Of a DNA stretch of 64,000 nt, positions 37,543-49,772 are shown piece by piece. Source of the stretch: Mesoflavibacter sp. (lineage in GTDB: Bacteria > Pseudomonadota > Alphaproteobacteria > UBA8366 > Aestuariispiraceae). The notes under the pieces are model-generated. The model made no database searches. It was not told where the DNA came from and was given only the letters and a program-made list of their open reading frames with translations. Position 1 is the stretch's first letter. Every line of letters begins with the position of its first letter. The DNA is taken from contig CP051228.1 in NCBI GenBank assembly GCA_017792345.1, positions 3,688,148 through 3,752,147 on the forward strand, read 5' to 3'. The position numbers were made by a program, and so were the translations under genes.

Positions 37543-38223
37543 ATGAACGACAGAGAAGTTGATCATAGAAATTTAAATATTTCGGCAGCAAATGTTATAT
37601 ATGCCGTTTTCTTTGGTATCATTTTTGCCTACCTTATACAAAATCGAAAAGAGGTTGGGGTGATGGATTTGTTTTCCCCCATGAATGGATCAGATATCAT
37701 TGCCTTAATGTCGATATTGTTATTTTGTGTTGTAATGTGGTTGGTAGATATCGTTGGTATTAGTAATTCAAAAATGAAGGTTGATGTGTTTGTGTTAATG
37801 TTATTTGTGAGATTTATTCCAATGACGTTAAGCATAATAATGATATGTGAGAGTATTTCATTTTGGATGATTACGTTTTCGTCTGTAGTTATTGTTGATA
37901 TATTTTTAACTCTATTTTATATAGATTCTAATGATGAGCAAAAAAGAATTAATTTCAAAAAATCATCAATGAATGATGAAGATATTTTATTGAGTTATGA
38001 TGTTTTGGTATCTCAATTGAATTTGGGGTTTGCTCTTCTTAAGTGTATGTTGGGGTTGAGTGCGATGATGCTTTTTGTGATGTTTTTTGTTCATACATAC
38101 CTGATGGTTGATCGGTATGCGATCCTAACTTCTATATGCTCTTTTCTGTGTCTCGTTTTTCATCTATGTTGGTGGATTGTCATGCGATACAATTTTATGA
38201 TTGGAGCTCGAAACGATGATTGA
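37543..38223 (+). CDS. small polytopic membrane protein, unknown
   Basis: 226 aa with six apparent membrane helices (for example IYAVFFGIIFAYLI, IIALMSILLFCVVMWLVDIV, FWMITFSSVVIVDIFLTLFY). A cytosolic loop (about 125-155) holds acidic and basic residues (DSNDEQKRINFKKSSMNDED). No family recognised. GAGGGAGG precedes the ATG. Its TGA lies 8 bases inside the next gene, so it is translationally coupled to the transporter and may be an accessory subunit. Confidence 0.78.
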   Translation: MNDREVDHRNLNISAANVIYAVFFGIIFAYLIQNRKEVGVMDLFSPMNGSDIIALMSILLFCVVMWLVDIVGISNSKMKVDVFVLMLFVRFIPMTLSIIMICESISFWMITFSSVVIVDIFLTLFYIDSNDEQKRINFKKSSMNDEDILLSYDVLVSQLNLGFALLKCMLGLSAMMLFVMFFVHTYLMVDRYAILTSICSFLCLVFHLCWWIVMRYNFMIGARNDD

Positions 38224-39652
38224 CTCTCGTGATTCGGTAATGTTTGTTTTTTTGTTGTTGTTTATTTTTTGTGTTCCTCTGTTTTTGCGGAAGGTTAGTT
38301 TTGTAGAGAAAATAAATAACAATAAGAATACTAGTGTTGTTCTGATGACTAGTTCGTTGTTGGCGACGTATGTTGGAGGCGGACTTCTGGCGGGCATAAT
38401 TTTCTTTGGCTATCAGGGTGGGGCGGTTGGAGTTTGGATTGGCCTTTCTTATTCATTTTTCTTTTTTGCTTTAGGGTTTCTTGCTCCGGGTATTCGGGGC
38501 GCGCTTCGGAATAGGGGGGTGGGGAGTTTTGTTAAATTTGTCGAAGACGCCTATGGAAGGCGAATCTCTCAGATGGTTGGGGGTGTATATTTGATAATTT
38601 TTATTTTATTTCTTTGTGCTCAGTTTATCGCTTTACGTTTGGTTTCTGATGTTTTTTTTGATTTTTCCGGAGTTTACTTAATATTATTATGCTCAATGAT
38701 AATTTTAGTTTATACCTGTTTATCCGGTTTTCGTGGTGTGTTGTTGACGGATCTCGTTCAGTTGATTGTTTTGGTGTCTGTTATTGTTTTCCTACTTGTT
38801 CCTGCTCTTTTTGAGGAAGATTTTATACGTTTCTCAAATCTCCCAGAATCCTATTTGTTAGGTACAGAGATGGGAGTTGTCTTTGCTGTTGGATCGTTGT
38901 TGTTTGCTGGCATGTCATTACTGGTTCGGATTGACGCTTGGGATAGAATTCATTCTTCTAAAGATGCTAAGACAGCTAGAATTTCTTTGTGTTTAACTGG
39001 ATTTCTAATTCTACCATTTTTTGTTGTTTATTCTTTGTTGGGGATGGATGCGAAGTTGTTGGGTATCGGAGTAGCAGATGAGGCAACTTTGCTTGAAGGT
39101 CTCCTGAATAGATATTTTACATCTCAATTATTAGTATTATGCGTTGCCGGTAGTTTTTTGGCGGCAATCATTTCGTCCGCGGATTCTCTCGTTCATTCTT
39201 TGGTGCTAAATTATATTCATAACAAAGAGTCTTTGCGAGTTCATTGGGATATTATCGATGGAGAATTGGATTGTGCTGAAACTTCCTCTAAAGTTAAAGT
39301 GAGTCAGACAGTTATCAACAGAGAGTATTGCTTGTCGGCATTTGCAATTGTTTTTGTGGCTTCCTCTGTTTCAGTTCTTTTTCCAGATATCGTTAGTATT
39401 ATCGTTGTAGCAACATCACTGCTTGTCATTTTTGTACCGATGACAGTCGGTGCTTTGATCTTGCCGAAAGCAAATGGGCGAGCTGCGATTGCTAGCTTAG
39501 CTGGCGGTATAGGGGCGTTTGTTGTAGCGTATCCGTTCATGAACAATAGTTCGTTCGTCCCCGCGTTTGCGGTTTCGCTAACTGCCTATGGATTAGTGCA
39601 TGTTAGGGCGCGCGGGCGTAAGATCGGTGATGCGTCAAAGCTGAAGGATTAA
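38216..39652 (+). CDS. sodium:solute symporter-family-like transporter
   Basis: About 478 aa with 12-13 membrane helices. SSS-type features: an early TSSLLATYVGGGLLAGIIFFGY (helix 1 substrate/Na region), LIVYTCLSGFRGVLLTDLVQ, and SSADSLVHSLVLNYI. Sodium-driven uptake of a small organic solute is likely; substrate unknown. ATG 38216 is used (GGAG 9 bases upstream) rather than TTG 38201. It overlaps the upstream membrane gene by 8 bases and is followed 4 bases later by a GNAT gene. Strongly AT-biased codons. Confidence 0.82.
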   Translation: MIDSRDSVMFVFLLLFIFCVPLFLRKVSFVEKINNNKNTSVVLMTSSLLATYVGGGLLAGIIFFGYQGGAVGVWIGLSYSFFFFALGFLAPGIRGALRNRGVGSFVKFVEDAYGRRISQMVGGVYLIIFILFLCAQFIALRLVSDVFFDFSGVYLILLCSMIILVYTCLSGFRGVLLTDLVQLIVLVSVIVFLLVPALFEEDFIRFSNLPESYLLGTEMGVVFAVGSLLFAGMSLLVRIDAWDRIHSSKDAKTARISLCLTGFLILPFFVVYSLLGMDAKLLGIGVADEATLLEGLLNRYFTSQLLVLCVAGSFLAAIISSADSLVHSLVLNYIHNKESLRVHWDIIDGELDCAETSSKVKVSQTVINREYCLSAFAIVFVASSVSVLFPDIVSIIVVATSLLVIFVPMTVGALILPKANGRAAIASLAGGIGAFVVAYPFMNNSSFVPAFAVSLTAYGLVHVRARGRKIGDASKLKD

Positions 39653-39656
39653 ATTG

Positions 39657-40169
39657 ATGGTAAAAGAAGTTATCCATGTTCCAGTTGATAGGCATGATCT
39701 GTTAATTAGACACATGGAACGCTTTGACGACAGGTACTTTCCAAGTCTGTCGTACCGATTTGGTAGTGTTGATGTGTTTTTGCGAAATTGGGTAAGTCAC
39801 GATGGGAGATGCGTCGCCTTATCTGAGTATGGTCGTATTACTGCTTCAATTGGTTTCTGGTTAGATGAAGACGGTAAATGGTATGTTGATTGGCTAAACT
39901 CGGAGAAGGAGGGGCTTTCAGGCGGCGGATTTGCGTTGATGATTTATGAGGCTGTAAAAGTGATTTCGGAGGAAAGTTCTCGAAATGTTACCTTTCGAAC
40001 TTGGCAAGGAAACAAGTCTTTGATTTCGTTGAGTCAGAAGCTTGGATTTAGAGTTTACGACGTGCTTCTGAGTGATATCGTTCCGGAACGAATTTCATTT
40101 TATTTTACCGCGGATCGAAACGTTATATTGCGACAAGTTCTTAAGTATGTTCGTCTCGAAGACGTTTAG
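39657..40169 (+). CDS. GNAT-family N-acetyltransferase-like protein
   Basis: About 170 aa. The GNAT fold is suggested by a central strand (KWYVDWLNSE), a glycine turn GLSGGGFALMIYEAV where acetyl-CoA pyrophosphate would bind, and the late FRTWQGNKSLISLSQKLGFRVYD (helix-strand typical of the C-terminal GNAT half). It is the third gene of the AT-rich island, so it may modify the compound taken up by the adjacent transporter. ATG 39657 has GAAGGA upstream. Confidence 0.72.
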   Translation: MVKEVIHVPVDRHDLLIRHMERFDDRYFPSLSYRFGSVDVFLRNWVSHDGRCVALSEYGRITASIGFWLDEDGKWYVDWLNSEKEGLSGGGFALMIYEAVKVISEESSRNVTFRTWQGNKSLISLSQKLGFRVYDVLLSDIVPERISFYFTADRNVILRQVLKYVRLEDV

Positions 40170-41334: not shown

Positions 41335-42309
41335 ATGTCCGACGAGATCGATTTCAAACCCGTATCCGGAACCGTTCTGCCGCGCTTTGCCGGTATACCG
41401 ACCTTCATGCGGCTGCCCCATCTGGCGCCCGAGAAAGCGGATGCGGTAGATATCGGCATCACGGGCGTGCCCTGGGACGGCGGAACGACGAATCGGGCGG
41501 GCGCCCGGCATGGGCCGCGTCAGATGCGCGACATGTCGACCATGATGCGCAATTGCCATCACGTCACCGGCATCATGCCTTTCGACCTGGCGAACTGCGC
41601 CGATCTGGGGGACAGCCCGGTCAATCCGATCCAATTGGAAGACACGCTGGAACGGGTCGAAGGGCATTTCCGAAAGATTCACGCGAAAGGCATTCTGCCG
41701 CTGACGGCGGGCGGAGACCATCTGATCTCGCTGCCGATCATGCGCGCCATCGCGGACACATCGAACCCGTTGGGCATGGTCCATTTCGATGCCCATACGG
41801 ATACCTGGGACCGCTATTTCGGCGGGGCGATGTACACGCACGGCACTCCCTTCCGCCGCGCCATCGAGGAAGGGCTGCTGGACCCGAAACGGACGATTCA
41901 GATCGGTATCCGCGGTGGTCTGTATCACCCCAAGGACAAGGAATGGGGATTGGCGCAGGGTATTCGCGTCGTCGAGATCGAGGAATATTTCGACCTGGGA
42001 CCCGACAAGGTCGCGGAACTGGCGCGGGAAATCGTCGGCGGCGGTCCTGCCTATATCTCTTTCGATGTCGACGGAATGGACCCGGTTTACGCGCCCGGCA
42101 CGGGCACGCCGGAGATCGGCGGCTATTCCACACATGACGCGCAGCGCATGGTGCGGGGACTGCGCGGCCTGGATATCGTCGGGGCGGATGTCGTCGAGGT
42201 CGCACCGCCCTTCGATCCGTCCGGCGCGACCGCGCTGGCAGGGGTCACCATCATGTGGGAGATCCTGTGCCTGATGGCCGAAAAGGTCGCCCATCGCAAA
42301 GCCGGCTGA
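41335..42309 (+). CDS. ureohydrolase, agmatinase/guanidino-acid hydrolase type
   Basis: 324 aa. Mn-binding motifs of the arginase/agmatinase family: GGDHLISLPIMRA, HFDAHTDTWD and SFDVDGMDPVYAPGTGTPE. It hydrolyses a guanidino group to urea plus an amine. Agmatine is the obvious substrate given the decarboxylase downstream, but guanidinobutyrate, guanidinopropionate or guanidine are possible. ATG 41335 has AGGAG 9 bases upstream. It opens the same-strand run 41335-49772, with 21 bases to the next gene. Confidence 0.9.
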   Translation: MSDEIDFKPVSGTVLPRFAGIPTFMRLPHLAPEKADAVDIGITGVPWDGGTTNRAGARHGPRQMRDMSTMMRNCHHVTGIMPFDLANCADLGDSPVNPIQLEDTLERVEGHFRKIHAKGILPLTAGGDHLISLPIMRAIADTSNPLGMVHFDAHTDTWDRYFGGAMYTHGTPFRRAIEEGLLDPKRTIQIGIRGGLYHPKDKEWGLAQGIRVVEIEEYFDLGPDKVAELAREIVGGGPAYISFDVDGMDPVYAPGTGTPEIGGYSTHDAQRMVRGLRGLDIVGADVVEVAPPFDPSGATALAGVTIMWEILCLMAEKVAHRKAG

Positions 42310-42330
42310 GCGGCCGCACAGGCAAGGATC

Positions 42331-43086
42331 GTGGACCTTCTGTTGACCTTTGACTGGTGGGTCGTCGCCATCCTGGCCGCCATCGCCGGTGTTGCGCGCG
42401 GCCTGTCCGGGTTCGGCATCGGGTTGATCATGATGCCGATCGGCGGCGCGTTGCTGACGCCGGCTTTCATGGTGCCGGTGCTTTCAATCCTGGACAGCCC
42501 TGCGTCGGTCTTCCTGCTGGCCGAGGCCTGGAAGCGAATCGACAAGCGAGATGTCCTGATACTGGCATCTGCGGCCGCTGTCTGCATGCCTGCGGGGATC
42601 TGGATCCTGACCTATGTCGAGGCAGGCACGGTAGCGGTCTGCGCCAACGCGGTCGCCCTGGCGACGGCCGTCGCGCTGCTGGCCGGACTGCGCCTGCGCG
42701 GCGCGCCCTCCTTGGCGAGAAGCCTGGCAACCGGAGGCCTTTCGGGCGTCCTGCAGGGGGCGGCGGCGCTGCCGGGGCCGCCGATCATTCTGGGATGGGT
42801 CGCGGCACAGATTCCCGGCCCGGCCCTGCGTGCCAATATCATCGCCTATTTCGCGCTGATTGACGCGCTTGTCGTCCCGATGCTCTGGATATCCGGGCTG
42901 TTCACGGTGGAGGTGCTGTGGTTCGGGGCCAGTCTGCTGCCCCTCTATCTCGGCGGCGTCCTGATCGGTCGGAAGGCGTTCGGGGTGATATCGGAAGGTC
43001 TGTTCCGCCGGGTCGTGCTGGGACTGGTCATCCTGGGGGCGCTCAGCGGCATCGTCGTCGTGTCATTGGGCGGCGGCGCGGGATGA
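42331..43086 (+). CDS. TauE/SafE-family membrane permease/exporter
   Basis: 251 aa with about eight hydrophobic helices. Start region WWVVAILAAIAGVARGLSGFG and the internal repeat LAGLRLRGAPSL / GGLSGVLQGAAALPGPPIILG carry the G-rich repeats of TauE/SafE (DUF81) proteins, which export sulfite or organic acids. GTG start. Position between ureohydrolase and nitrilase genes suggests it moves a substrate or product of that pathway. Confidence 0.87.
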   Translation: MDLLLTFDWWVVAILAAIAGVARGLSGFGIGLIMMPIGGALLTPAFMVPVLSILDSPASVFLLAEAWKRIDKRDVLILASAAAVCMPAGIWILTYVEAGTVAVCANAVALATAVALLAGLRLRGAPSLARSLATGGLSGVLQGAAALPGPPIILGWVAAQIPGPALRANIIAYFALIDALVVPMLWISGLFTVEVLWFGASLLPLYLGGVLIGRKAFGVISEGLFRRVVLGLVILGALSGIVVVSLGGGAG

Positions 43087-43175
43087 CGCGGTGCGGGAAA
43101 TCGCTTTGTTTACAGATCACCCGCCCTGTGTTGTCCTTGTTATTCAAAGAAAACGAAGGATGGACCACACCCCGT

Positions 43176-44168
43176 ATGCAGCCCTTTGCAATCGCCGGCG
43201 TTCAAATGCATGTCGGCGCTTATACCGAGAACGTTTCCGCCATCCGCCAACGCCTCGATTTGACGGTCGCCCGTTTCCCCTGGGTCCAAATGGTCCTGTT
43301 CTCGGAGCTGGCGCCCTATGGGCCGCTGCCCCAGCACGCCCAGGATTTGCCCGGACCGACCGAAGAGGCATTTCAGGAAATGGCGCGCGCGCACGGGGTC
43401 TGGTTGATCCCCGGTTCCGTCTTCGAGCGGGTCGGCGACAAGATCTACAACACGGCTATCGTGATCAATCCGGACGGCGAAGTCGTCGGCCGTTACCGCA
43501 AGATGTTTCCCTTCCGGCCCTATGAGGATGGGGTCGAGGCGGGGACGGAATTCCTGATCTTCGATGTGCCGAACGTTGGTCGGTTCGGCCTGTCGATCTG
43601 TTACGATATCTGGTTCCCGGAAACGACGCGGACGCTGACCGCCCAGGGGGTGGAGGTTCTGCTGCATCCGGTTCTGACCGGAACCGTCGATCGGGACGTC
43701 GAGCTTTCCATCGCGCGCGCCTCCGCCGCGATGTTCCAGTGCTATATCTTCGACATCAACGGTTTGGGGGCAGGCGGCTGCGGGCGATCCTGCGTGGTCG
43801 ATCCGTCCGGGCTGATCCTGTATCAGGCAGCCGGGCAGGAGGAGATCATTCCGATCGAGGTCGATCTGGACCTGGTCCGGCGTCAGCGCGAGACCGGTCT
43901 GAAAGGCCTCGGGCAAACCCTGAAGAGCTTCCGCGACCGGGATGTCGAGTTCGGAATTTACGACCGGGCCAACCCGGCCAACGCCTATCTGAACAGTCTG
44001 GGGCCGCTTGAAATGCCGCAGCGCGGATCCCGCGCCGGTCTGGATGTCCGCCCCGGCACATTGGAGACGCCCGCCACGCAGGCCTATGGCGAAGCCACGG
44101 GGGCCGGCGGCCCTCGCCTGCATACGGTGGATCTGATTCATGGAGTAAACAGAACCGGGACAACATGA
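43176..44168 (+). CDS. nitrilase-superfamily carbon-nitrogen hydrolase
   Basis: 330 aa. The catalytic triad is visible: Glu44 (LFSELAPYG), Lys109 (RYRKMFPF) and Cys142 (SICYDIWFPET). Members hydrolyse amides, nitriles or carbamoyl amines or transfer acyl groups. The final ~50 residues are an extension beyond the core fold. ATG 43176 is chosen because the protein then starts at the conserved AIAGVQMHVG strand. It overlaps the decarboxylase start by ATGA, so the two are co-translated, strongly suggesting one pathway. Confidence 0.88.
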   Translation: MQPFAIAGVQMHVGAYTENVSAIRQRLDLTVARFPWVQMVLFSELAPYGPLPQHAQDLPGPTEEAFQEMARAHGVWLIPGSVFERVGDKIYNTAIVINPDGEVVGRYRKMFPFRPYEDGVEAGTEFLIFDVPNVGRFGLSICYDIWFPETTRTLTAQGVEVLLHPVLTGTVDRDVELSIARASAAMFQCYIFDINGLGAGGCGRSCVVDPSGLILYQAAGQEEIIPIEVDLDLVRRQRETGLKGLGQTLKSFRDRDVEFGIYDRANPANAYLNSLGPLEMPQRGSRAGLDVRPGTLETPATQAYGEATGAGGPRLHTVDLIHGVNRTGTT

Positions 44169-46966
44169 GCCAAAACAAGAAAAAGCCCGCTACGGGCGGC
44201 GAACAGGGAAAAGGCGGTCAAAAGGGCGATCTAACAGCTCACTACTCCGCCTCGCAGCTAAGAAACGATAGCTGGAGCAAATTGAAGAATGCATCCGCCC
44301 GACTGGCCGTGGCGGAGAGGCGGGCGCCCGGCGATCCGATGCACAGGGTCGTCGAAGATCTGCTGGCGCGTCTGGAGCCCATCGAAAGCTATTGGGCCTT
44401 TCCCGGGCGGATCACCTTCGAGCGGCTGAAAAGCATGTTCGACGAAGGGGAGTTCACCTCCCTGGCCCATACGGTCGCACGGACGACCCGGGCGCTGATG
44501 TCCGACAGCTACCGCAGCCGCCATGTTCATGTACTGCCGACCGATGAAGAGGAGGACGACGAGGACCGGTCCGACACCGCCGACGAACGGGCCCGAGCAC
44601 GGCCCTATTTCGAGGTCATGATCGTCGACGATCTCTCCCCGCATCAGGAATACACGCTGAAGCGCTCCCTGCGCGACAAGCGCCGGGCGGAGGATTCCTT
44701 CGTCTATGAAAGCGTTGTGGTGGGCAGTTTCGAGGACGCGCTGATCGGCGTCCTGTTCAACTACAACATCCAGGCGGTCGTGATCCGCTACGGCTTCCCC
44801 TACACATCGCGCCATGGCCTGCCGATGCTGACCCGGTACCTGAACCGGTTGGGGGACGAAAGCTTCGAGGATCTGCCCCCGGAGGAGTATGGCGTGTCCT
44901 TGGCCTATGCCATCGGCAAGCTGCGGCCGGAGCTGGATATCTACATGGTCACGGATCAGTCGGTGGAGGATATCGCCGGCCGGGTCTGCGACAATTGCCG
45001 TAGGGTCTTCTACAATCAGGAAGACTATATGGAACTGCACCTGAACATCCTCAGGGGCGTCAATTCGCGCTACAAGACGCCGTTCTTTACCGCACTCAAG
45101 GAATACTCGAAGCAGCCGACCGGCGTGTTCCACGCCATGCCGATCAGCCGCGGAAAGTCGATCGCCAAATCCCATTGGATCAAGGATATGGGCGACTTCT
45201 ACGGCATGAACATCTTCCTGGCGGAGACTTCGGCGACATCGGGCGGGCTCGATTCGCTGCTGGACCCGCATGGGCCGATCAAGCAGGCGCAAGAAGTGGC
45301 GGCCAGGGCCTTCGGCGCGCGGCACACCTTCTTCGCGACCAATGGCACGTCGACTTGCAACAAGATCGTCGTGCAGGCGCTGGTGAAGCCGGACGATATC
45401 GTGCTGGTCGACCGCGACTGCCACAAATCGCACCATTACGGCATGGTCCTTGCGGGCGCGCAGGTCGTCTATCTGGACAGCTATCCGCTGAACGAATTCT
45501 CGATGTATGGCGCTGTGCCGCTGCGCGAGATCAAGCATCAGCTCTTGAACCTCAAACGGGCCGGGAAACTGGACCGGGTCAAGATGCTGTTGCTGACCAA
45601 CTGCACCTTCGACGGCATCGTCTACAATGTCGAACGGGTGATGGAAGAATGCCTGGCGATCAAGCCGGACCTCGTCTTCCTGTGGGACGAGGCCTGGTTC
45701 GGCTTCGCGCGCTTCGGCCCGACCTATCGCCTGCGCACCGCCATGCACAATGCCGGCATGCTGCGTGAGCGGTACCAGACGGGCGAGTACCGCGCCGAAT
45801 ACGAGGCCTGGAAAGAAGAGTTCGACAAAGCGGATCCCGAAAAGGATTCGACGTGGCTCGACCGGCGCCTGATGCCGGATCCCGATAAGGCGCGGGTACG
45901 GGTCTATGCCTGCCAATCGACCCACAAGACGCTTACCAGTCTGCGTCAGGGGTCGATGATCCATATCCATGATCAGGACTATAAGGCGAAGGTGGAGGAA
46001 GCCTTCCACGAAGCCTACATGACCCATACCTCGACCTCGCCGAACTACCAAATCGTCGCGTCCCTGGATGTCGGCCGCCGACAGGTCGAACTGGAGGGCT
46101 TTGAGCTTGTCCAGAAACAGGTCGAGATGGCGATGGTCCTGCGCGAGAAGGTCGCGACCCATCCGCTGCTCAGCAAGTATTTCCGTGTGCTGACGCCGCA
46201 CGACATGATCCCGGATACCTATCGCGAAAGCGGGATCGAGGCCTATTACGAGGCCGGCAAGGGTTGGAACGATATCTGGGAGGCCTGGGCGAAGGACGAG
46301 TTCGCCCTGGACGCGACCCGGATCACCTTGCTGATCGGTAAGACCGGTTTGGACGGCGACACGTTCAAGAACAAGGAGTTGATGGACAAGTACGGGATTC
46401 AGATCAACAAGACGTCCCGCAACACGGTCCTGTTCATGACCAATATCGGCACGACCCGCTCGTCCGTCGCCTATCTGATCGAGGTGCTGGTCAAGATTGC
46501 GACCGATCTGGACGAGCGCATGGACGATTCCTCCCCGGTCGAGCGCAAGCTGCATGAAAAGCAGGTCACGTCGCTGTTGGAGGATCTCCCGCCGCAACCG
46601 GATTTCAGCCGCTTTCACGATGCCTTCCGCGCCAAGGGGACGCAGAAGGGGCAGGGGGGCGACACGCCGGAAGGCGACATCCGGACGGCCTATTTCCTCG
46701 CCTATGACGACGAGAATTGCGAGTATCTGGGGCTCGAAGACGGGTCCCTGGACGCGGAGATGGCGAAGGGGCGCGAGGTCGTGTCCTCCACCTTCATCAT
46801 TCCCTATCCGCCCGGCTTCCCGATTCTGGTGCCGGGTCAGGTCGTCAGCGCCGAAATCCTGAAATTCATGCGGGCGCTGGACGTCAAGGAGATCCACGGT
46901 TTTCGGCCGGAATTGGGGCTGCGTGTCTTTACCGAGAGGGCGTTGAAAACCGCCGCGAAGAAGTGA
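44165..46966 (+). CDS. Orn/Lys/Arg decarboxylase, long form (933 aa)
   Basis: PLP fold-I decarboxylase of basic amino acids. After a ~145-residue unusual N-terminus (Lys/Glu-rich, with an acidic patch EEEDDEDRSDTADE) comes the receiver-like wing (VMIVDDLSPHQEYTL). The core has HKSHH, DEAW and PLP-Lys588 in STHKTLTSLRQGS; the C-domain has IPYPPGFPILVPG. The protein is 933 aa against ~710-760 for inducible AdiA/CadA enzymes, which fits a biosynthetic or specialised enzyme. Substrate (Arg, Lys or Orn) is not decidable by eye. Overlaps the nitrilase gene; 29 bases to the ATP-grasp gene. Confidence 0.92.
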   Translation: MSQNKKKPATGGEQGKGGQKGDLTAHYSASQLRNDSWSKLKNASARLAVAERRAPGDPMHRVVEDLLARLEPIESYWAFPGRITFERLKSMFDEGEFTSLAHTVARTTRALMSDSYRSRHVHVLPTDEEEDDEDRSDTADERARARPYFEVMIVDDLSPHQEYTLKRSLRDKRRAEDSFVYESVVVGSFEDALIGVLFNYNIQAVVIRYGFPYTSRHGLPMLTRYLNRLGDESFEDLPPEEYGVSLAYAIGKLRPELDIYMVTDQSVEDIAGRVCDNCRRVFYNQEDYMELHLNILRGVNSRYKTPFFTALKEYSKQPTGVFHAMPISRGKSIAKSHWIKDMGDFYGMNIFLAETSATSGGLDSLLDPHGPIKQAQEVAARAFGARHTFFATNGTSTCNKIVVQALVKPDDIVLVDRDCHKSHHYGMVLAGAQVVYLDSYPLNEFSMYGAVPLREIKHQLLNLKRAGKLDRVKMLLLTNCTFDGIVYNVERVMEECLAIKPDLVFLWDEAWFGFARFGPTYRLRTAMHNAGMLRERYQTGEYRAEYEAWKEEFDKADPEKDSTWLDRRLMPDPDKARVRVYACQSTHKTLTSLRQGSMIHIHDQDYKAKVEEAFHEAYMTHTSTSPNYQIVASLDVGRRQVELEGFELVQKQVEMAMVLREKVATHPLLSKYFRVLTPHDMIPDTYRESGIEAYYEAGKGWNDIWEAWAKDEFALDATRITLLIGKTGLDGDTFKNKELMDKYGIQINKTSRNTVLFMTNIGTTRSSVAYLIEVLVKIATDLDERMDDSSPVERKLHEKQVTSLLEDLPPQPDFSRFHDAFRAKGTQKGQGGDTPEGDIRTAYFLAYDDENCEYLGLEDGSLDAEMAKGREVVSSTFIIPYPPGFPILVPGQVVSAEILKFMRALDVKEIHGFRPELGLRVFTERALKTAAKK

Positions 46967-46995
46967 ACAGGACCGACGAACAGGGGGTAAAAATC

Positions 46996-48672
46996 ATGGC
47001 AAAGAAAGCCGCATCGCGTAAGGCCACAAAGAAGGCCGCCAAGGAACCCAAGAAGGCGGCCGCGAAGGCGGCGAGTGCCAAGAAGGCCGTCACGAAAACC
47101 GCCGCCAAGAAGGCCGCCGCCAAGAAAGCCACGGCCAAACCGGTGAAGGCCAAGGTCGCTGCGAAGAAAGCCGCACCCAAGAAAGTTGCTGCGAAGAAGG
47201 CGCCGTCGAGAAAAGTCGCCGCGAAAAAGGCCGGTAAGCAGAAGGTGCTGCGCGGCATGTCCGACATCCGGCGCTTCTTCCATCGCAACGAAATGCCCAT
47301 CGTTTTCATCAGCGCCACCAACTTCAACCTGTTGGGTATGGATGAATGGGTCCGGAACTTCAAATATATCAATTACATCGACTGTTTCGACGGACGTCAC
47401 CCCAATGTCTTCGTCCCGTCCGAAGCGCCGCATGCGGAATTCCAGTCGATCGAGGACATCAACAATTACCTGCTGCAGCACAAGGAAGTGCTGGATACCG
47501 TCAAGGCGATGGGGAAGAACCCGAAATCGGTCTTCCTGATGTTCGATGACGAGACGGAGAAACTGGCCAAAAAGGCCAATATGGAAGTCTGGTTCCCGAA
47601 GGCCAGCCTGCGTACCCGGGTCGACAACAAGATCGAAACCGTGCGGATCGGCGACAAGGCGGGCGTGCCCTCGGTTCCGAACGTCCTGTCGGAGATCACC
47701 GGCTACGATCAGTTGCGCGAGGTCGCGAAGGGCCTGGGCACCGATCTGGTGCTGCAATCGGCCTTCGGCGATTCCGGACATACGACATTCTTCATTTCGA
47801 ACGAGAAGGATTTCAAGAAGCACGAGGCTGAGATCGTCGGCCAGGGCGAGATCAAGGTGATGAAGCGGATCAACTGCCGCGGCTCCGCGATCGAAGCCTG
47901 TACGACCAAGCAGGGCACCATCGTCGGCCCGTTGATGACCGAACTGGTCGGCTTCAAGGAATTGACGCCCTACAAGGGCGGCTGGTGCGGCAACGAGATC
48001 TTCGACGAAAGCTTCACGCCGGAGATTCGCCAGAAAGCCCGCGACTATACGTTCAAATTCGGCGAGCAACTGCGCAAGGAAGGGTATCGCGGCTATTTCG
48101 AGCTGGATTTCCTGATCGATATGGACTCGAACGAGATGTATCTGGGCGAGCTGAATCCGCGCATCACCGGGGCGTCGTCCATGACCAATCACGCGGCCTT
48201 CGCCCATGCCGACGCGCCGCTGTTCCTGTTCCATTTGCTCGAGTTTTCCGGGGTTCCGTTCGAGCTGGACATCCAGGCGTTGAACGACCGCTGGGCTGAT
48301 CCCGACAATATCGACAGTTGGTCCCAATATGTCATGAAACACACCGAGGATTCGGTGGACATCATTACCGAAGCCCCCGAAAGTGGCATCTACCACATGA
48401 ACCCGGACGGCAGTATCGAATACAGCCGCTTCGACTATCACCGACGTGCGGTGGCCAGCGAGAACGAGGCCTTCTTCCTGCGGATTTCCGGTCAGGGAGA
48501 TTACCGGTATGAGGGCGCGGATCTTGGCATCCTGGTGACGCGCGGTCGGTTGATGACGGACAATTTCAAGCTCAATAAACGGGCCAAGAAATGGATCGAT
48601 GGGATGCGCGCGAAGTTTATCGGCCGGAGCCTTCAGCCGGTTCCGCAGGCTGGGGCGTACAAGATCCTGTAG
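46996..48672 (+). CDS. ATP-grasp ligase with histone-H1-like Lys/Ala-rich N-terminus
   Basis: 558 aa. Residues 1-78 are almost only Lys, Ala, Pro, Thr and Val in KKAAAKKA-type repeats, like bacterial H1-like proteins. An ATP-grasp enzyme follows: VLQSAFGDSGHTTFF (ATP lobe), VMKRINCRGSAIEA, and the metal/ATP motif YFELDFLIDMDSNEMYLGEL-NPR. ATP-grasp enzymes join a carboxylate to an amine, thiol or CO2-like acceptor. Next to a decarboxylase it could amidate an amine. AGGGGGT precedes ATG 46996; an upstream in-frame reading overlaps the decarboxylase and is rejected. Confidence 0.88.
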   Translation: MAKKAASRKATKKAAKEPKKAAAKAASAKKAVTKTAAKKAAAKKATAKPVKAKVAAKKAAPKKVAAKKAPSRKVAAKKAGKQKVLRGMSDIRRFFHRNEMPIVFISATNFNLLGMDEWVRNFKYINYIDCFDGRHPNVFVPSEAPHAEFQSIEDINNYLLQHKEVLDTVKAMGKNPKSVFLMFDDETEKLAKKANMEVWFPKASLRTRVDNKIETVRIGDKAGVPSVPNVLSEITGYDQLREVAKGLGTDLVLQSAFGDSGHTTFFISNEKDFKKHEAEIVGQGEIKVMKRINCRGSAIEACTTKQGTIVGPLMTELVGFKELTPYKGGWCGNEIFDESFTPEIRQKARDYTFKFGEQLRKEGYRGYFELDFLIDMDSNEMYLGELNPRITGASSMTNHAAFAHADAPLFLFHLLEFSGVPFELDIQALNDRWADPDNIDSWSQYVMKHTEDSVDIITEAPESGIYHMNPDGSIEYSRFDYHRRAVASENEAFFLRISGQGDYRYEGADLGILVTRGRLMTDNFKLNKRAKKWIDGMRAKFIGRSLQPVPQAGAYKIL

Positions 48673-48761
48673 GCCGCGATCTCGGTGCCGTCTTCCTGCC
48701 CTTGCCGCAGGAGGACGGCCCCTATCGCGCGACGGCCGATGGGGCGTTGGACGGGACGCAG

Positions 48762-49772
48762 ATGGACCTGACATTCCAATCCTTTTCGGAAGCGGCGCCG
48801 GGCCCGAAATGGCAGGCGCTGTTCCAGAAGTATTGGCCGGCCTATCGTGCCTGGTACCTGTCCGACGGTCTGGAACAGCGGGCGACGTGGCTGGCCTGCA
48901 AAGAGGCGCTGGAAACCTACATGCCGCGCTTGATGCCGACTTACGATGCGCTTTGCGATCTTGCGGGCGGCAAGGACCTGCCGTCGCGCTTCCTGTCCTT
49001 GTGGAAGCCGCCGGCCTATATCTCCGGCTGCAGCCAGGTCGTCTGGCTGGGCGATGGGCCGAAACTGATCCGCAATTATGACTACAGCCCGGCGCTGATG
49101 GACGGCGTCATCATGGAAAGCGCGTGGAACGGCACCCGCGTCATCGCGATGACGGATTGCCTCTGGGGCGTTCTGGACGGCGTCAACGAGAAAGGGCTGG
49201 CCGTCAGTCTGACCTTCGGCGGCCGGCGCACGGTGGGCGAGGGATTCGGAATTCCGGTCATTCTGCGCAACATTCTGGAATTCTGTGAAACGGCGGAGGA
49301 GGCCGGCGAGATGCTGGCCGAGATTCCGACGCATATGGCCTATAACGTCACCGCCGTAGATCGGTCCGGGCGTTTCCGCACCGCCTATCTGTCGCCGGGC
49401 AGTCGCCCGATCATCAAATCCGTGCCCTATGCGACGAACCATCAGGGCCGGATCGAATGGCACGACCATGCCCGGGCGACCGCGACCCTGGAGCGTGAAC
49501 AGTTTCTGCGCTTCCGTCTGGAAGACGACAGCCTGACCTTCCCCAAACTGGTCGAGGCCTTCCGCCGCCAGCCGCTTTATACCAATGCCTATTCCAGCGG
49601 GTTCGGGACGATCTATACCGCCGTCTACGATCCGATCGCTGGGACGGCGCATTACCTTTTTCCGGACGGCACCGTGAAGCGGTTCGGCTTCGGCGACGTC
49701 GGCGAGACCGCCTGGCATGTGCCCATCGACGGCAGCGGAGCCCCCGAAATCCGGGGCATGGACTGGGTCTGA
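48762..49772 (+). CDS. C45-family (acyl-CoA:6-APA acyltransferase type) Ntn-hydrolase
   Basis: About 336 aa. Ntn fold with a Gly-Cys self-cleavage site: Cys90 in ISGCSQVVW is the expected new N-terminal nucleophile, preceded by an ~89-residue helical propeptide. NYDYSPALMDGV and GLAVSLTFGGRRTVGEGFG are typical of C45. Members transfer or remove acyl groups on amino acids and peptides. ATG 48762 is the first plausible methionine; no strong ribosome site is seen, so the start is uncertain. Last gene of the decarboxylase cluster. Confidence 0.85.
   Translation: MDLTFQSFSEAAPGPKWQALFQKYWPAYRAWYLSDGLEQRATWLACKEALETYMPRLMPTYDALCDLAGGKDLPSRFLSLWKPPAYISGCSQVVWLGDGPKLIRNYDYSPALMDGVIMESAWNGTRVIAMTDCLWGVLDGVNEKGLAVSLTFGGRRTVGEGFGIPVILRNILEFCETAEEAGEMLAEIPTHMAYNVTAVDRSGRFRTAYLSPGSRPIIKSVPYATNHQGRIEWHDHARATATLEREQFLRFRLEDDSLTFPKLVEAFRRQPLYTNAYSSGFGTIYTAVYDPIAGTAHYLFPDGTVKRFGFGDVGETAWHVPIDGSGAPEIRGMDWV

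What the first reader, a model, noticed from the sequence alone, without database searches (positions are those of the whole stretch)
41335..49772. Co-directional ureohydrolase, exporter, nitrilase, long decarboxylase, ATP-grasp, C45 cluster
Six plus-strand genes with spacing of 21, 89, -4, 29 and 89 bases carry a guanidine hydrolase, a TauE/SafE exporter, a C-N hydrolase, a 933-aa basic amino-acid decarboxylase, an ATP-grasp ligase and an Ntn acyltransferase-type enzyme. The decarboxylase makes an amine, the ATP-grasp enzyme could join it to a carboxylate, and the nitrilase or C45 protein could trim or acylate the product. I know of no named pathway with this set. The ATGA overlap between nitrilase and decarboxylase argues for a shared role.
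Basis: partly seen in the sequence, partly recalled or inferred. Interest (0 to 1): 0.82.

Follow-up and report, generated by a model that had tools for sequence, protein, structure and literature searches.

The report
Widespread unstudied four-enzyme amino acid operon
Four enzyme genes in this run (an amidase, a decarboxylase, a ligase and a self-cutting hydrolase) travel together through many marine, soil and root-nodule bacteria, and their neighbours point to handling of glutamate-, GABA- and beta-alanine-like compounds by a route for which I found no description.

Summary
The six genes are exactly where stated. Four of them (nitrilase-type amidase, 933-aa PLP decarboxylase, ATP-grasp ligase, C45 Ntn enzyme) form a conserved module. 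Of the best 80 loci found by ligase sequence, all have the C45 gene and 68 have all four in the same order. In one draw of 398 Pseudomonadota genomes all 11 ligase carriers also carry the decarboxylase and C45, in several cases reshuffled but still together.

The ureohydrolase (3 of 80 loci) and the TauE-family permease (0 of 80) are local additions. The ureohydrolase has the tyrosine of guanidinopropionase, so beta-alanine is its likely product. The decarboxylase is an Rv2531c-type orphan: where solved lysine and arginine decarboxylases have a glutamate it has Asn (100 of 100 distinct sequences). Recurrent neighbours are GABA transaminase, a TAXI-TRAP importer with a glutamate-type binding site and a PuuR-like regulator; some carriers have it among arginine-to-GABA or ectoine genes or beside nif genes.

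Best reading: a catabolic module that turns an acidic amino acid or its amide into an omega-amino acid through an ATP-made amide. Substrates and product are inferred.

The parts
41335..42309 (+). guanidino-acid ureohydrolase (GpuA-like, 324 aa); accessory, not core
   Evidence: PF00491 299 bits; best solved relative 3nip 3-guanidinopropionase 449.8 bits vs guanidinobutyrase 3nio 325.1; Tyr at the GpuA Y157 position in the window and L029-L032 (L035 and L036 are second copies of L030 and L032). Also passes the agmatinase model TIGR01230, 192.8 vs 174.3.
42331..43086 (+). TauE/SafE-family permease (251 aa, GTG start); accessory
   Evidence: PF01925 56.5 bits; a match in L029 only among L029-L034 and in 0 of 80 loci.
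43176..44168 (+). nitrilase-superfamily amidase (330 aa), core gene 1
   Evidence: PF00795 121.7 bits; Glu45, Lys110, Glu118, Cys143 (numbered from base 43173, one codon ahead of the ATG) kept in 88 of 88 rows, with one gap at Glu45 (83 distinct); 70 of 80 loci at >=30% coverage.
44165..46966 (+). Rv2531c-type fold-I PLP decarboxylase (933 aa), core gene 2; overlaps gene 1 by ATGA
   Evidence: 876 bits to PDB 9n0n, 198 or less to the Arg/Lys/Orn enzymes listed; Lys588, Asn748 and Arg594 each 104 of 104 rows, 100 of 100 distinct.
46996..48672 (+). ATP-grasp ligase (558 aa), core gene 3, with ~80-residue Lys/Ala-rich N-terminal tail
   Evidence: NF005096 777.1 vs 684; AlphaFold2 model pLDDT 81.7, VIA Z 23.8 to PurK-type, 23.7 to biotin carboxylase, 23.1 to PylC, which are tied.
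48762..49772 (+). C45-family Ntn acyltransferase/hydrolase (336 aa), core gene 4
   Evidence: NF040521 172.3 vs 85; Cys90 in 103 of 103 rows, 99 distinct; model pLDDT 92.6, VIA Z 28.9 to isopenicillin N acyltransferase 2x1c.

Best explanation
SHOWN: four genes (amidase, decarboxylase, ATP-grasp ligase, C45 Ntn enzyme) form a conserved module; the ligase-C45 pair is its tightest part. INFERRED: the module is patchily spread, partly on plasmids, and is catabolic; it works on acidic amino acids or their amides and on omega-amino acids. In many carriers a TAXI-TRAP importer brings in L-glutamate (or Gln/pyroglutamate). The decarboxylase removes the alpha-carboxylate of an acidic or amide-type substrate and gives a GABA- or beta-alanine-type unit. 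The ligase uses ATP to activate a carboxylate as acyl phosphate and couples it to an amine, making a temporary amide. The nitrilase and/or C45 enzyme then hydrolyses or transfers that amide. The omega-amino acid goes on to GABA transaminase or a related aminotransferase. In this window the GpuA-type ureohydrolase would feed in the same kind of product (beta-alanine from 3-guanidinopropionate), and on some plasmids a guanidinobutyrase route would feed GABA. The logic resembles the gamma-glutamyl putrescine (Puu) route, with non-homologous ligase and hydrolase. Which carboxylate and amine are joined, and in what order the steps run, is not known.
For: Co-conservation: best 80 loci, C45 80, DC 76, amidase 70 at >=30% coverage; 68 in canonical order. 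In 398 genomes, ligase 11, DC 17, all 11 shared (hypergeometric 1.4e-17, phylogeny not corrected); C45 with all 11, amidase with 9 of 11. Neighbours in 60 canonical loci with >=5 kb upstream: TAXI 24, TRAP permease 24, GabT 18, UspA 16, PuuR-like 14, GabT or TAXI 34. TAXI site, 27 distinct loci: VcGluP Y45, S75, Q93, E125 kept 27 of 27, Y200 22 of 27 (F 5), M201 position Thr 26 of 27; Y45 and Q93 are the key residues and TtGluBP has Thr at that position (PMC11574862 passages). DC has Asn where solved Arg/Lys enzymes have Glu. A DC form without the other module genes sits beside AspT-type antiporters, 9 of 9. Linked ureohydrolases look like guanidino-acid types by one key residue. In L128, L164 and L166 (three similar plasmids) ligase-C45 lies in an arginine-to-GABA operon without an adjacent decarboxylase; on the L128 plasmid a decarboxylase lies elsewhere. 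No canonical glutamate decarboxylase over cut-off in 11 carriers.
Against: No activity of any core enzyme is measured. The window's own genome has no GabT over the family cut-off (best 223 vs 507 bits) and no TAXI or GabT match was found beside its module, so GABA as product is doubtful here; 4 of 11 carriers lack GabT over cut-off. 26 of 60 canonical loci show neither GabT nor TAXI nearby. In L149 and L150 the module sits in an ectoine catabolism cluster, and on rhizobial plasmids with a dipeptide-type importer, once beside nif genes, which glutamate does not directly explain. L130 has decarboxylase and ligase but no C45 match, with transposase genes downstream. Arg594 could bind the PLP phosphate and say nothing on substrate. 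The ureohydrolase also passes the agmatinase model TIGR01230. No background rate was taken for the missing glutamate decarboxylase. A direct Glu-to-GABA step would need no ligase.
Confidence: 0.35

Rival explanations
1. One reading: a basic amino acid is decarboxylated to an amine, the ATP-grasp enzyme joins it to a carboxylate to build a specialised metabolite, and the nitrilase or C45 enzyme trims or acylates it.
For: Trio co-conserved; ATP-grasp fold near PylC, an amide ligase; C45 fold nearest an acyltransferase; a TauE-family permease in the window.
Against: Asn in place of the Glu of solved Arg/Lys enzymes, 100 of 100 distinct sequences; NCBIfam Lys/Arg/Orn decarboxylase models reach 103-212 bits against cut-offs of 794-1310; recurrent neighbours are importers and catabolic enzymes; permease not conserved.
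Confidence: 0.2
2. A Puu-like polyamine route: the ligase gamma-glutamylates putrescine or agmatine made by the decarboxylase, and C45 or the amidase releases GABA after oxidation.
For: PuuR-like regulator (128 bits, below its 211 cut-off) and GabT next to the module; SSADH-like dehydrogenases in some loci.
Against: No oxidase cluster was recognised among the recurrent neighbour clusters printed, those in at least 6 loci (judged by eye; no Puu models were run); linked ureohydrolases look guanidino-acid rather than agmatine types by key residue; doubtful basic substrate.
Confidence: 0.15
3. A make-and-store or exchange cycle: ligase and C45 build and break a pseudo-dipeptide (storage, osmotic or rhizopine-like nutrient), which neighbouring importers take up again.
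For: Ligase and C45 paired in 80 of 80 loci; dipeptide-type ABC importer near C45 in L126, L127 (25-47% identity), L169 and L170, with nifHDKEN upstream in L170; ectoine cluster context in L149 and L150.
Against: That importer's binding protein at >=40% identity is in 0 of 60 canonical loci (more distant importers such as that of L127 would be missed); L130 has the ligase without a C45 match; no product known.
Confidence: 0.2
4. The ligase is a true biotin carboxylase or carbamoylating enzyme and the cluster is a carboxylation pathway.
For: NCBIfam name 'biotin carboxylase' (NF005096); biotin carboxylases among top folds.
Against: The other biotin and pyruvate carboxylase models score 22-32 bits against cut-offs of 597-1114; no carrier-protein or carboxyltransferase cluster was recognised among the recurrent neighbours printed (by eye); PurK-type and PylC folds score equally.
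Confidence: 0.05

Closest known systems
Rv2531c-type amino acid decarboxylase (PDB 9n0n/9n0o/9n0p)
   Same: Full-length homologue, 876 bits over residues 25-928, same STHK lysine and same Asn in place of the Glu of the Arg/Lys enzymes.
   Different: The solved relative's activity is reported as not clarified (PMC12910592 passages); its gene neighbourhood was not examined here.
Biodegradative Orn/Lys/Arg decarboxylases (AdiA, LdcI, SpeF)
   Same: Same fold-I superfamily, PF01276, STHK lysine motif.
   Different: 198 bits or less to each solved one listed; Glu (seen in one Arg and two Lys enzymes; for ornithine enzymes recalled) replaced by Asn; about 160-175 more residues ahead of the PLP domain.
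Guanidinopropionase GpuA / guanidinobutyrase GbuA
   Same: Window ureohydrolase 450 bits to GpuA with the Y157-type residue; L128, L164, L166 and L062 enzymes carry the GbuA M161-type residue (positions counted by me on the printed alignment; residue roles from a PMC10833137 passage).
   Different: Here next to the four-enzyme module; activity untested.
Gamma-glutamyl putrescine (Puu) pathway
   Same: Works alike in outline: ATP ligase, amide intermediate, hydrolase, GABA, PuuR-like regulator, GabT.
   Different: The ligase is ATP-grasp, not glutamine-synthetase-like, and the hydrolase is Ntn C45 (Puu enzyme classes recalled); no Puu models were run.
Isopenicillin N acyltransferase (C45 fold)
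   Same: VIA Z 28.9, rmsd 3.2 A, 301 aligned; Cys90 invariant.
   Different: 14% identity; substrate unknown.
TAXI-TRAP glutamate importer VcGluP (8S4J) / TtGluBP
   Same: Module-linked TAXI protein 412 bits to 8s4j, with the key Tyr and Gln kept in 27 of 27 (positions counted by me on the printed alignment).
   Different: Thr instead of Met at position 201 in 26 of 27, as in TtGluBP; absent beside the window copy.

Membership tests
Orn/Lys/Arg decarboxylases (substrate class) | OKR_DC_1 domain with PLP lysine in an STHK motif | tested here: met
   PF01276 255.6 bits; Lys588 100 of 100 distinct.
Orn/Lys/Arg decarboxylases (substrate class) | Glu at LdcI E526 (position counted by me on the alignment; its role in binding the distal cationic group, and its presence in ornithine enzymes, are recalled) | tested here: not met
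   Asn748, 100 of 100 distinct; also Asn in 9n0n; Glu in 6q6i, 6y3x and 9e0m.
Orn/Lys/Arg decarboxylases (substrate class) | Score over an NCBIfam equivalog or subfamily cut-off | tested here: not met
   Best 212.4 vs 968 (LdcC), 182 vs 1167 (Arg).
Rv2531c-type decarboxylase family | Full-length homology and shared active-site residues | tested here: met
   876.6 bits, residues 25-928.
PRK06524 (NF005096) | Score over curated cut-off | tested here: met
   777.1 vs 684.
Biotin carboxylase (function) | Score over acetyl-CoA carboxylase BC models | tested here: not met
   25.2 vs 597 (PRK08591) and similar.
Biotin carboxylase (function) | Bicarbonate- and biotin-dependent activity | not testable with these tools
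   Needs enzyme assay.
ATP-grasp superfamily | Characteristic fold | tested here: met
   Z 23.8, rmsd 4.4 A, 359 aligned to 3k5h.
C45 proenzyme family | Score over cut-off and Cys nucleophile | tested here: met
   172.3 vs 85; Cys90 99 of 99 distinct.
Nitrilase superfamily | Glu-Lys-Cys catalytic residues | tested here: met
   E45 87 plus one gap, K110 88, C143 88 of 88 rows, 83 distinct; catalytic roles recalled.
N-carbamoylputrescine amidase AguB | Score over equivalog cut-off | tested here: not met
   76.5 vs 410.
Agmatinase | Score over the agmatinase models | tested here: inconclusive
   TIGR01230 192.8 vs 174.3 passes; PRK02190 290.4 vs 302 fails.
3-guanidinopropionase GpuA | Tyr157-type specificity residue and closest homology among solved structures | tested here: met
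   449.8 bits; DRYFG motif in the window and L029-L032.
3-guanidinopropionase GpuA | Hydrolysis of 3-guanidinopropionate | not testable with these tools
   Needs enzyme assay.
Puu gamma-glutamyl pathway | PuuA, PuuB, PuuC and PuuD homologues in the operon or genome | not tested
   No Puu models were run on genomes; the six window genes fall in other families.

The most novel reading that the evidence does not exclude
A carrier-amide route from glutamate to GABA (or aspartate to beta-alanine). The ATP-grasp enzyme caps the side-chain carboxylate of the amino acid with a recycled amine, which makes the neutral-side-chain substrate that the Asn-bearing decarboxylase prefers. The C45 and nitrilase enzymes then release the omega-amino acid and return the carrier. 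It would be a further way to make GABA or beta-alanine, and it would give the Rv2531c-type decarboxylases their substrate class.
Probability: 0.12. Interest if true: 0.82.

Novelty: new variant of a known kind. Interest (0 to 1): 0.6.

Why it matters
The module is widespread: in a collection with one genome per species, 447 stretches encode a relative of the ligase, of which the best 80 were read. I found no paper on it in the searches made, which cover open-licence papers only and of whose hits only part was listed. It suggests a testable substrate class for a decarboxylase family with a solved structure but no clarified activity. It also suggests that a ligase labelled 'biotin carboxylase' in annotation is something else. 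It links glutamate import, GABA or beta-alanine use, ectoine breakdown and, on one rhizobial plasmid, the nitrogen-fixation region to one unknown chemistry.

Tried and rejected
Arginine-to-putrescine reading (decarboxylase, agmatinase, N-carbamoylputrescine amidase): set aside because linked ureohydrolases carry guanidino-acid residues, the AguB model is not met and the Glu of the Arg/Lys enzymes is missing. It is not excluded: the agmatinase model TIGR01230 is passed.

Biotin-dependent carboxylation: set aside on scores and because no partner cluster was recognised among the recurrent neighbours printed.

Chance adjacency: rejected.

Literature: searches for the gene set (20 of 92 listed, 0 papers), for gargatine, a recalled name that may be irrelevant, for guanidinobutyramide terms (20 of 326 listed) and for roseobacter polyamine use (20 of 104 listed) gave no paper on this module by the titles and abstract starts shown. 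The Rv2531c structure paper is not held, so its findings come only from passages of the review PMC12910592.

VIA-align rows cannot exclude other ATP-grasp families that Foldseek ranked lower; carnosine-synthase-like or peptide-ligase types other than PylC were not seen among the 50 rows shown, which excludes nothing.

Decarboxylase tree: the nine AspT-linked sequences and the other 95 fall on two sides of one split (support 0.987), but the tree was rooted on the nine, so which group branched first is not known; some of the 95 (L153, L154) are less like the window than the nine are.

Double rows: L030/L035, L032/L036, L033/L037 and L053/L161 are the same contigs met twice; counts on distinct sequences are given.

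Not done: a fold of the decarboxylase with substrate, a tree-aware co-occurrence test, Puu-gene searches in carriers, GabT and GAD background rates in the 398-genome draw.
Full report
OBSERVATION. The six ORFs, their strand, gaps and the ATGA overlap are as stated. Families: arginase/ureohydrolase, TauE, CN_hydrolase, OKR decarboxylase, an ATP-grasp protein found by NCBIfam NF005096 (777 bits, cut-off 684) and a C45 proenzyme.

WHAT IS CONSERVED. Of 59 relatives searched, six genomes besides the window's have a strong ligase match; all six (L029-L034) also carry amidase, decarboxylase and C45. One same-genus genome, G001, has only a weak match to the ligase. A profile scan of genome contigs found 447 stretches encoding ligase relatives, of which the best 80 were kept and read. 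At >=30% coverage, C45 is present in 80, decarboxylase in 76, amidase in 70; 69 have all four and 68 of these have the order amidase-decarboxylase-ligase-C45 on one strand, L039 being the exception. Of the 11 loci lacking a part, eight have the ligase close to a contig edge; L048, L061 (no amidase match) and L089 (no decarboxylase match) do not. The ureohydrolase is in 3 of 80, one of them (L062) of the GbuA type. The TauE gene has a match in L029 only among L029-L034 and in 0 of 80.

UNBIASED DRAW. In one draw of 398 Pseudomonadota genomes the ligase (E<=1e-40) is in 11 and the decarboxylase (E<=1e-100) in 17; all 11 are shared (hypergeometric 1.4e-17, not corrected for phylogeny; the window's genome is one of the 11). 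C45 lies with the ligase in 11 of 11 and the amidase in 9 of 11 (absent in L153, L154). The order differs in L149-L151 (amidase-ligase-C45-decarboxylase) and L152. Staying together through reshuffling argues for a shared job. The six genomes with the decarboxylase alone carry a form 47-51% identical to the window's. Together with L129, L167 and L168 it lies beside AspT-type antiporters in 9 of 9, in L155-L160 by matches of 28-79% identity. Exceptions on plasmids: L130 has decarboxylase and ligase without a C45 match, and L131 a decarboxylase alone, both with transposase genes nearby.

ENZYMES. The decarboxylase is a full-length homologue of Rv2531c (9n0n, 876.6 bits), whose activity a 2026 review calls unclarified (PMC12910592, passages read). 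At the place of LdcI Glu526, counted by me on the printed alignment (the residue's role is recalled), it has Asn, 104 of 104 rows and 100 of 100 distinct sequences; Arg594 is likewise invariant where the three Arg/Lys enzymes shown have Ser. This speaks against a simple basic substrate but does not prove another. The ligase model (pLDDT 81.7; residues 1-79 below 50) matches PurK-type, biotin carboxylase and PylC folds with Z about 23-24, which are tied. The C45 model (pLDDT 92.6) is nearest isopenicillin N acyltransferase, Z 28.9. Catalytic residues of the amidase (88 rows, 83 distinct) and the C45 nucleophile (103 rows, 99 distinct) are kept.

UREOHYDROLASE. Its best solved relative is 3-guanidinopropionase (449.8 bits) before guanidinobutyrase (325.1). 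It has Tyr at the position whose Tyr157 (GpuA) and Met161 (GbuA) were reported as substrate-recognition residues (PMC10833137 passage; positions counted by me). Ureohydrolases near the module in L128, L164, L166 (similar plasmids) and L062 have Met there. So the linked enzymes look like guanidino-acid hydrolases giving beta-alanine or GABA. Against this, the window enzyme passes the agmatinase model TIGR01230.

NEIGHBOURS. Clustering of ORFs around the 80 loci gave a class III, GabT-like transaminase cluster (30 loci), TRAP permease (26), TAXI binding protein (25), XRE-cupin regulator (17) and UspA (16) (clusters made without family models). Stricter counts in 60 canonical loci with >=5 kb upstream: TAXI 24, TRAP permease 24, GabT 18 (>=50% identity), UspA 16, regulator 14, GabT or TAXI 34, so neither in 26. 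One GabT scanned passes TIGR00700 (547 vs 507) and one regulator scanned is PuuR-like below cut-off (128 vs 211). The TAXI protein scores 412 bits to VcGluP (8s4j). Of six ligand residues, four are kept in 27 of 27, Y200 in 22 of 27, and M201 is replaced, by Thr in 26. VcGluP binds L-glutamate, and its Y45 and Q93 matter most (PMC11574862, passages read; a second TAXI with the same pair binds glutamate, PMC12344293 passages). Other TAXI systems bind other acids, such as 2-oxoglutarate and orthophthalate. Other settings: an ectoine catabolism cluster with DoeA, DoeB and EutB over cut-off in L149 and 80-89% identical copies in L150; an arginine racemase/2-ketoarginine/guanidinobutyrate operon holding ligase and C45 in L128, L164, L166; decarboxylase-ligase-C45 plus a dipeptide-type ABC importer and amidase on rhizobial plasmids L126, L169 and L170, next to nifHDKEN in L170.

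INTERPRETATION. Glutamate import, GABA transaminase, guanidino-acid hydrolases and AspT partners of the solitary decarboxylases converge on acidic and omega-amino acids. In the arginine plasmids a GABA-forming route takes the place of the adjacent decarboxylase, as if both supplied the same unit to ligase and C45. A catabolic route through an ATP-made amide is therefore the best reading (0.35), with the order of steps and the amide unknown. Against it: the window genome has no GabT over cut-off, only 7 of 11 carriers have one, TAXI is absent here, and the ectoine and nif settings are not explained by glutamate alone. A canonical glutamate decarboxylase over cut-off is absent from all 11 carriers searched, but no background rate was measured.

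NOVELTY. No paper on the module appeared in the parts listed (open-licence PMC papers only). I rate it a new variant of a known kind: an amino-acid catabolic operon whose logic may resemble the Puu route but whose enzymes and gene set differ.

Noticed in passing
window 37543-40169: A three-ORF island of low G+C (46.5% in the 36-40 kb block against 60-64% elsewhere), none matching Pfam at E<=0.001, lies between the phosphonate-type ABC genes and the GST gene. In the close relative L029 that gap is about 650 bases, so the island looks inserted.
   Followed up: partly
window 46996-47247: The ligase carries an ~80-residue Lys/Ala-rich, histone-H1-like N-terminal tail predicted disordered. Similar tails of about 44-132 residues, counted to the furthest upstream start, occur in L029-L034, L050, L072 and L077; tails under 10 residues were not printed.
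   Followed up: partly
L149:3633-17361, L150: The four-gene module sits in the middle of an ectoine/hydroxyectoine catabolism cluster.
   Followed up: partly
L170:1-21347, L126, L169: Decarboxylase-ligase-C45 with a dipeptide-type ABC importer and amidase on rhizobial plasmids, beside nifHDKEN in L170.
   Followed up: partly
L129, L155-L160, L167, L168: A form of the decarboxylase without the other module genes is found beside AspT-type antiporters in 9 of 9; L168 also has aspartate 4-decarboxylase and an HdeA/HdeB chaperone, suggesting acid stress.
   Followed up: partly
L062:13072, L039:13359: A second, diverged C45 gene lies next to the module.
   Followed up: no
L057 (WNWL01000005.1): A contig titled Oceanobacillus sp. 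carries a proteobacterial-type copy of the module (75% ligase identity); mislabelling or contamination is my guess.
   Followed up: no
L030:13810-15189, L031:3498-4979: A 460-494 aa protein (the L030 copy has no Pfam match) sits between ureohydrolase and amidase where the window has the TauE gene.
   Followed up: partly
L130:8000-17000, L131: Rhizobial plasmids with partial copies: decarboxylase and ligase without C45 (L130), decarboxylase alone (L131), with transposase genes nearby.
   Followed up: no
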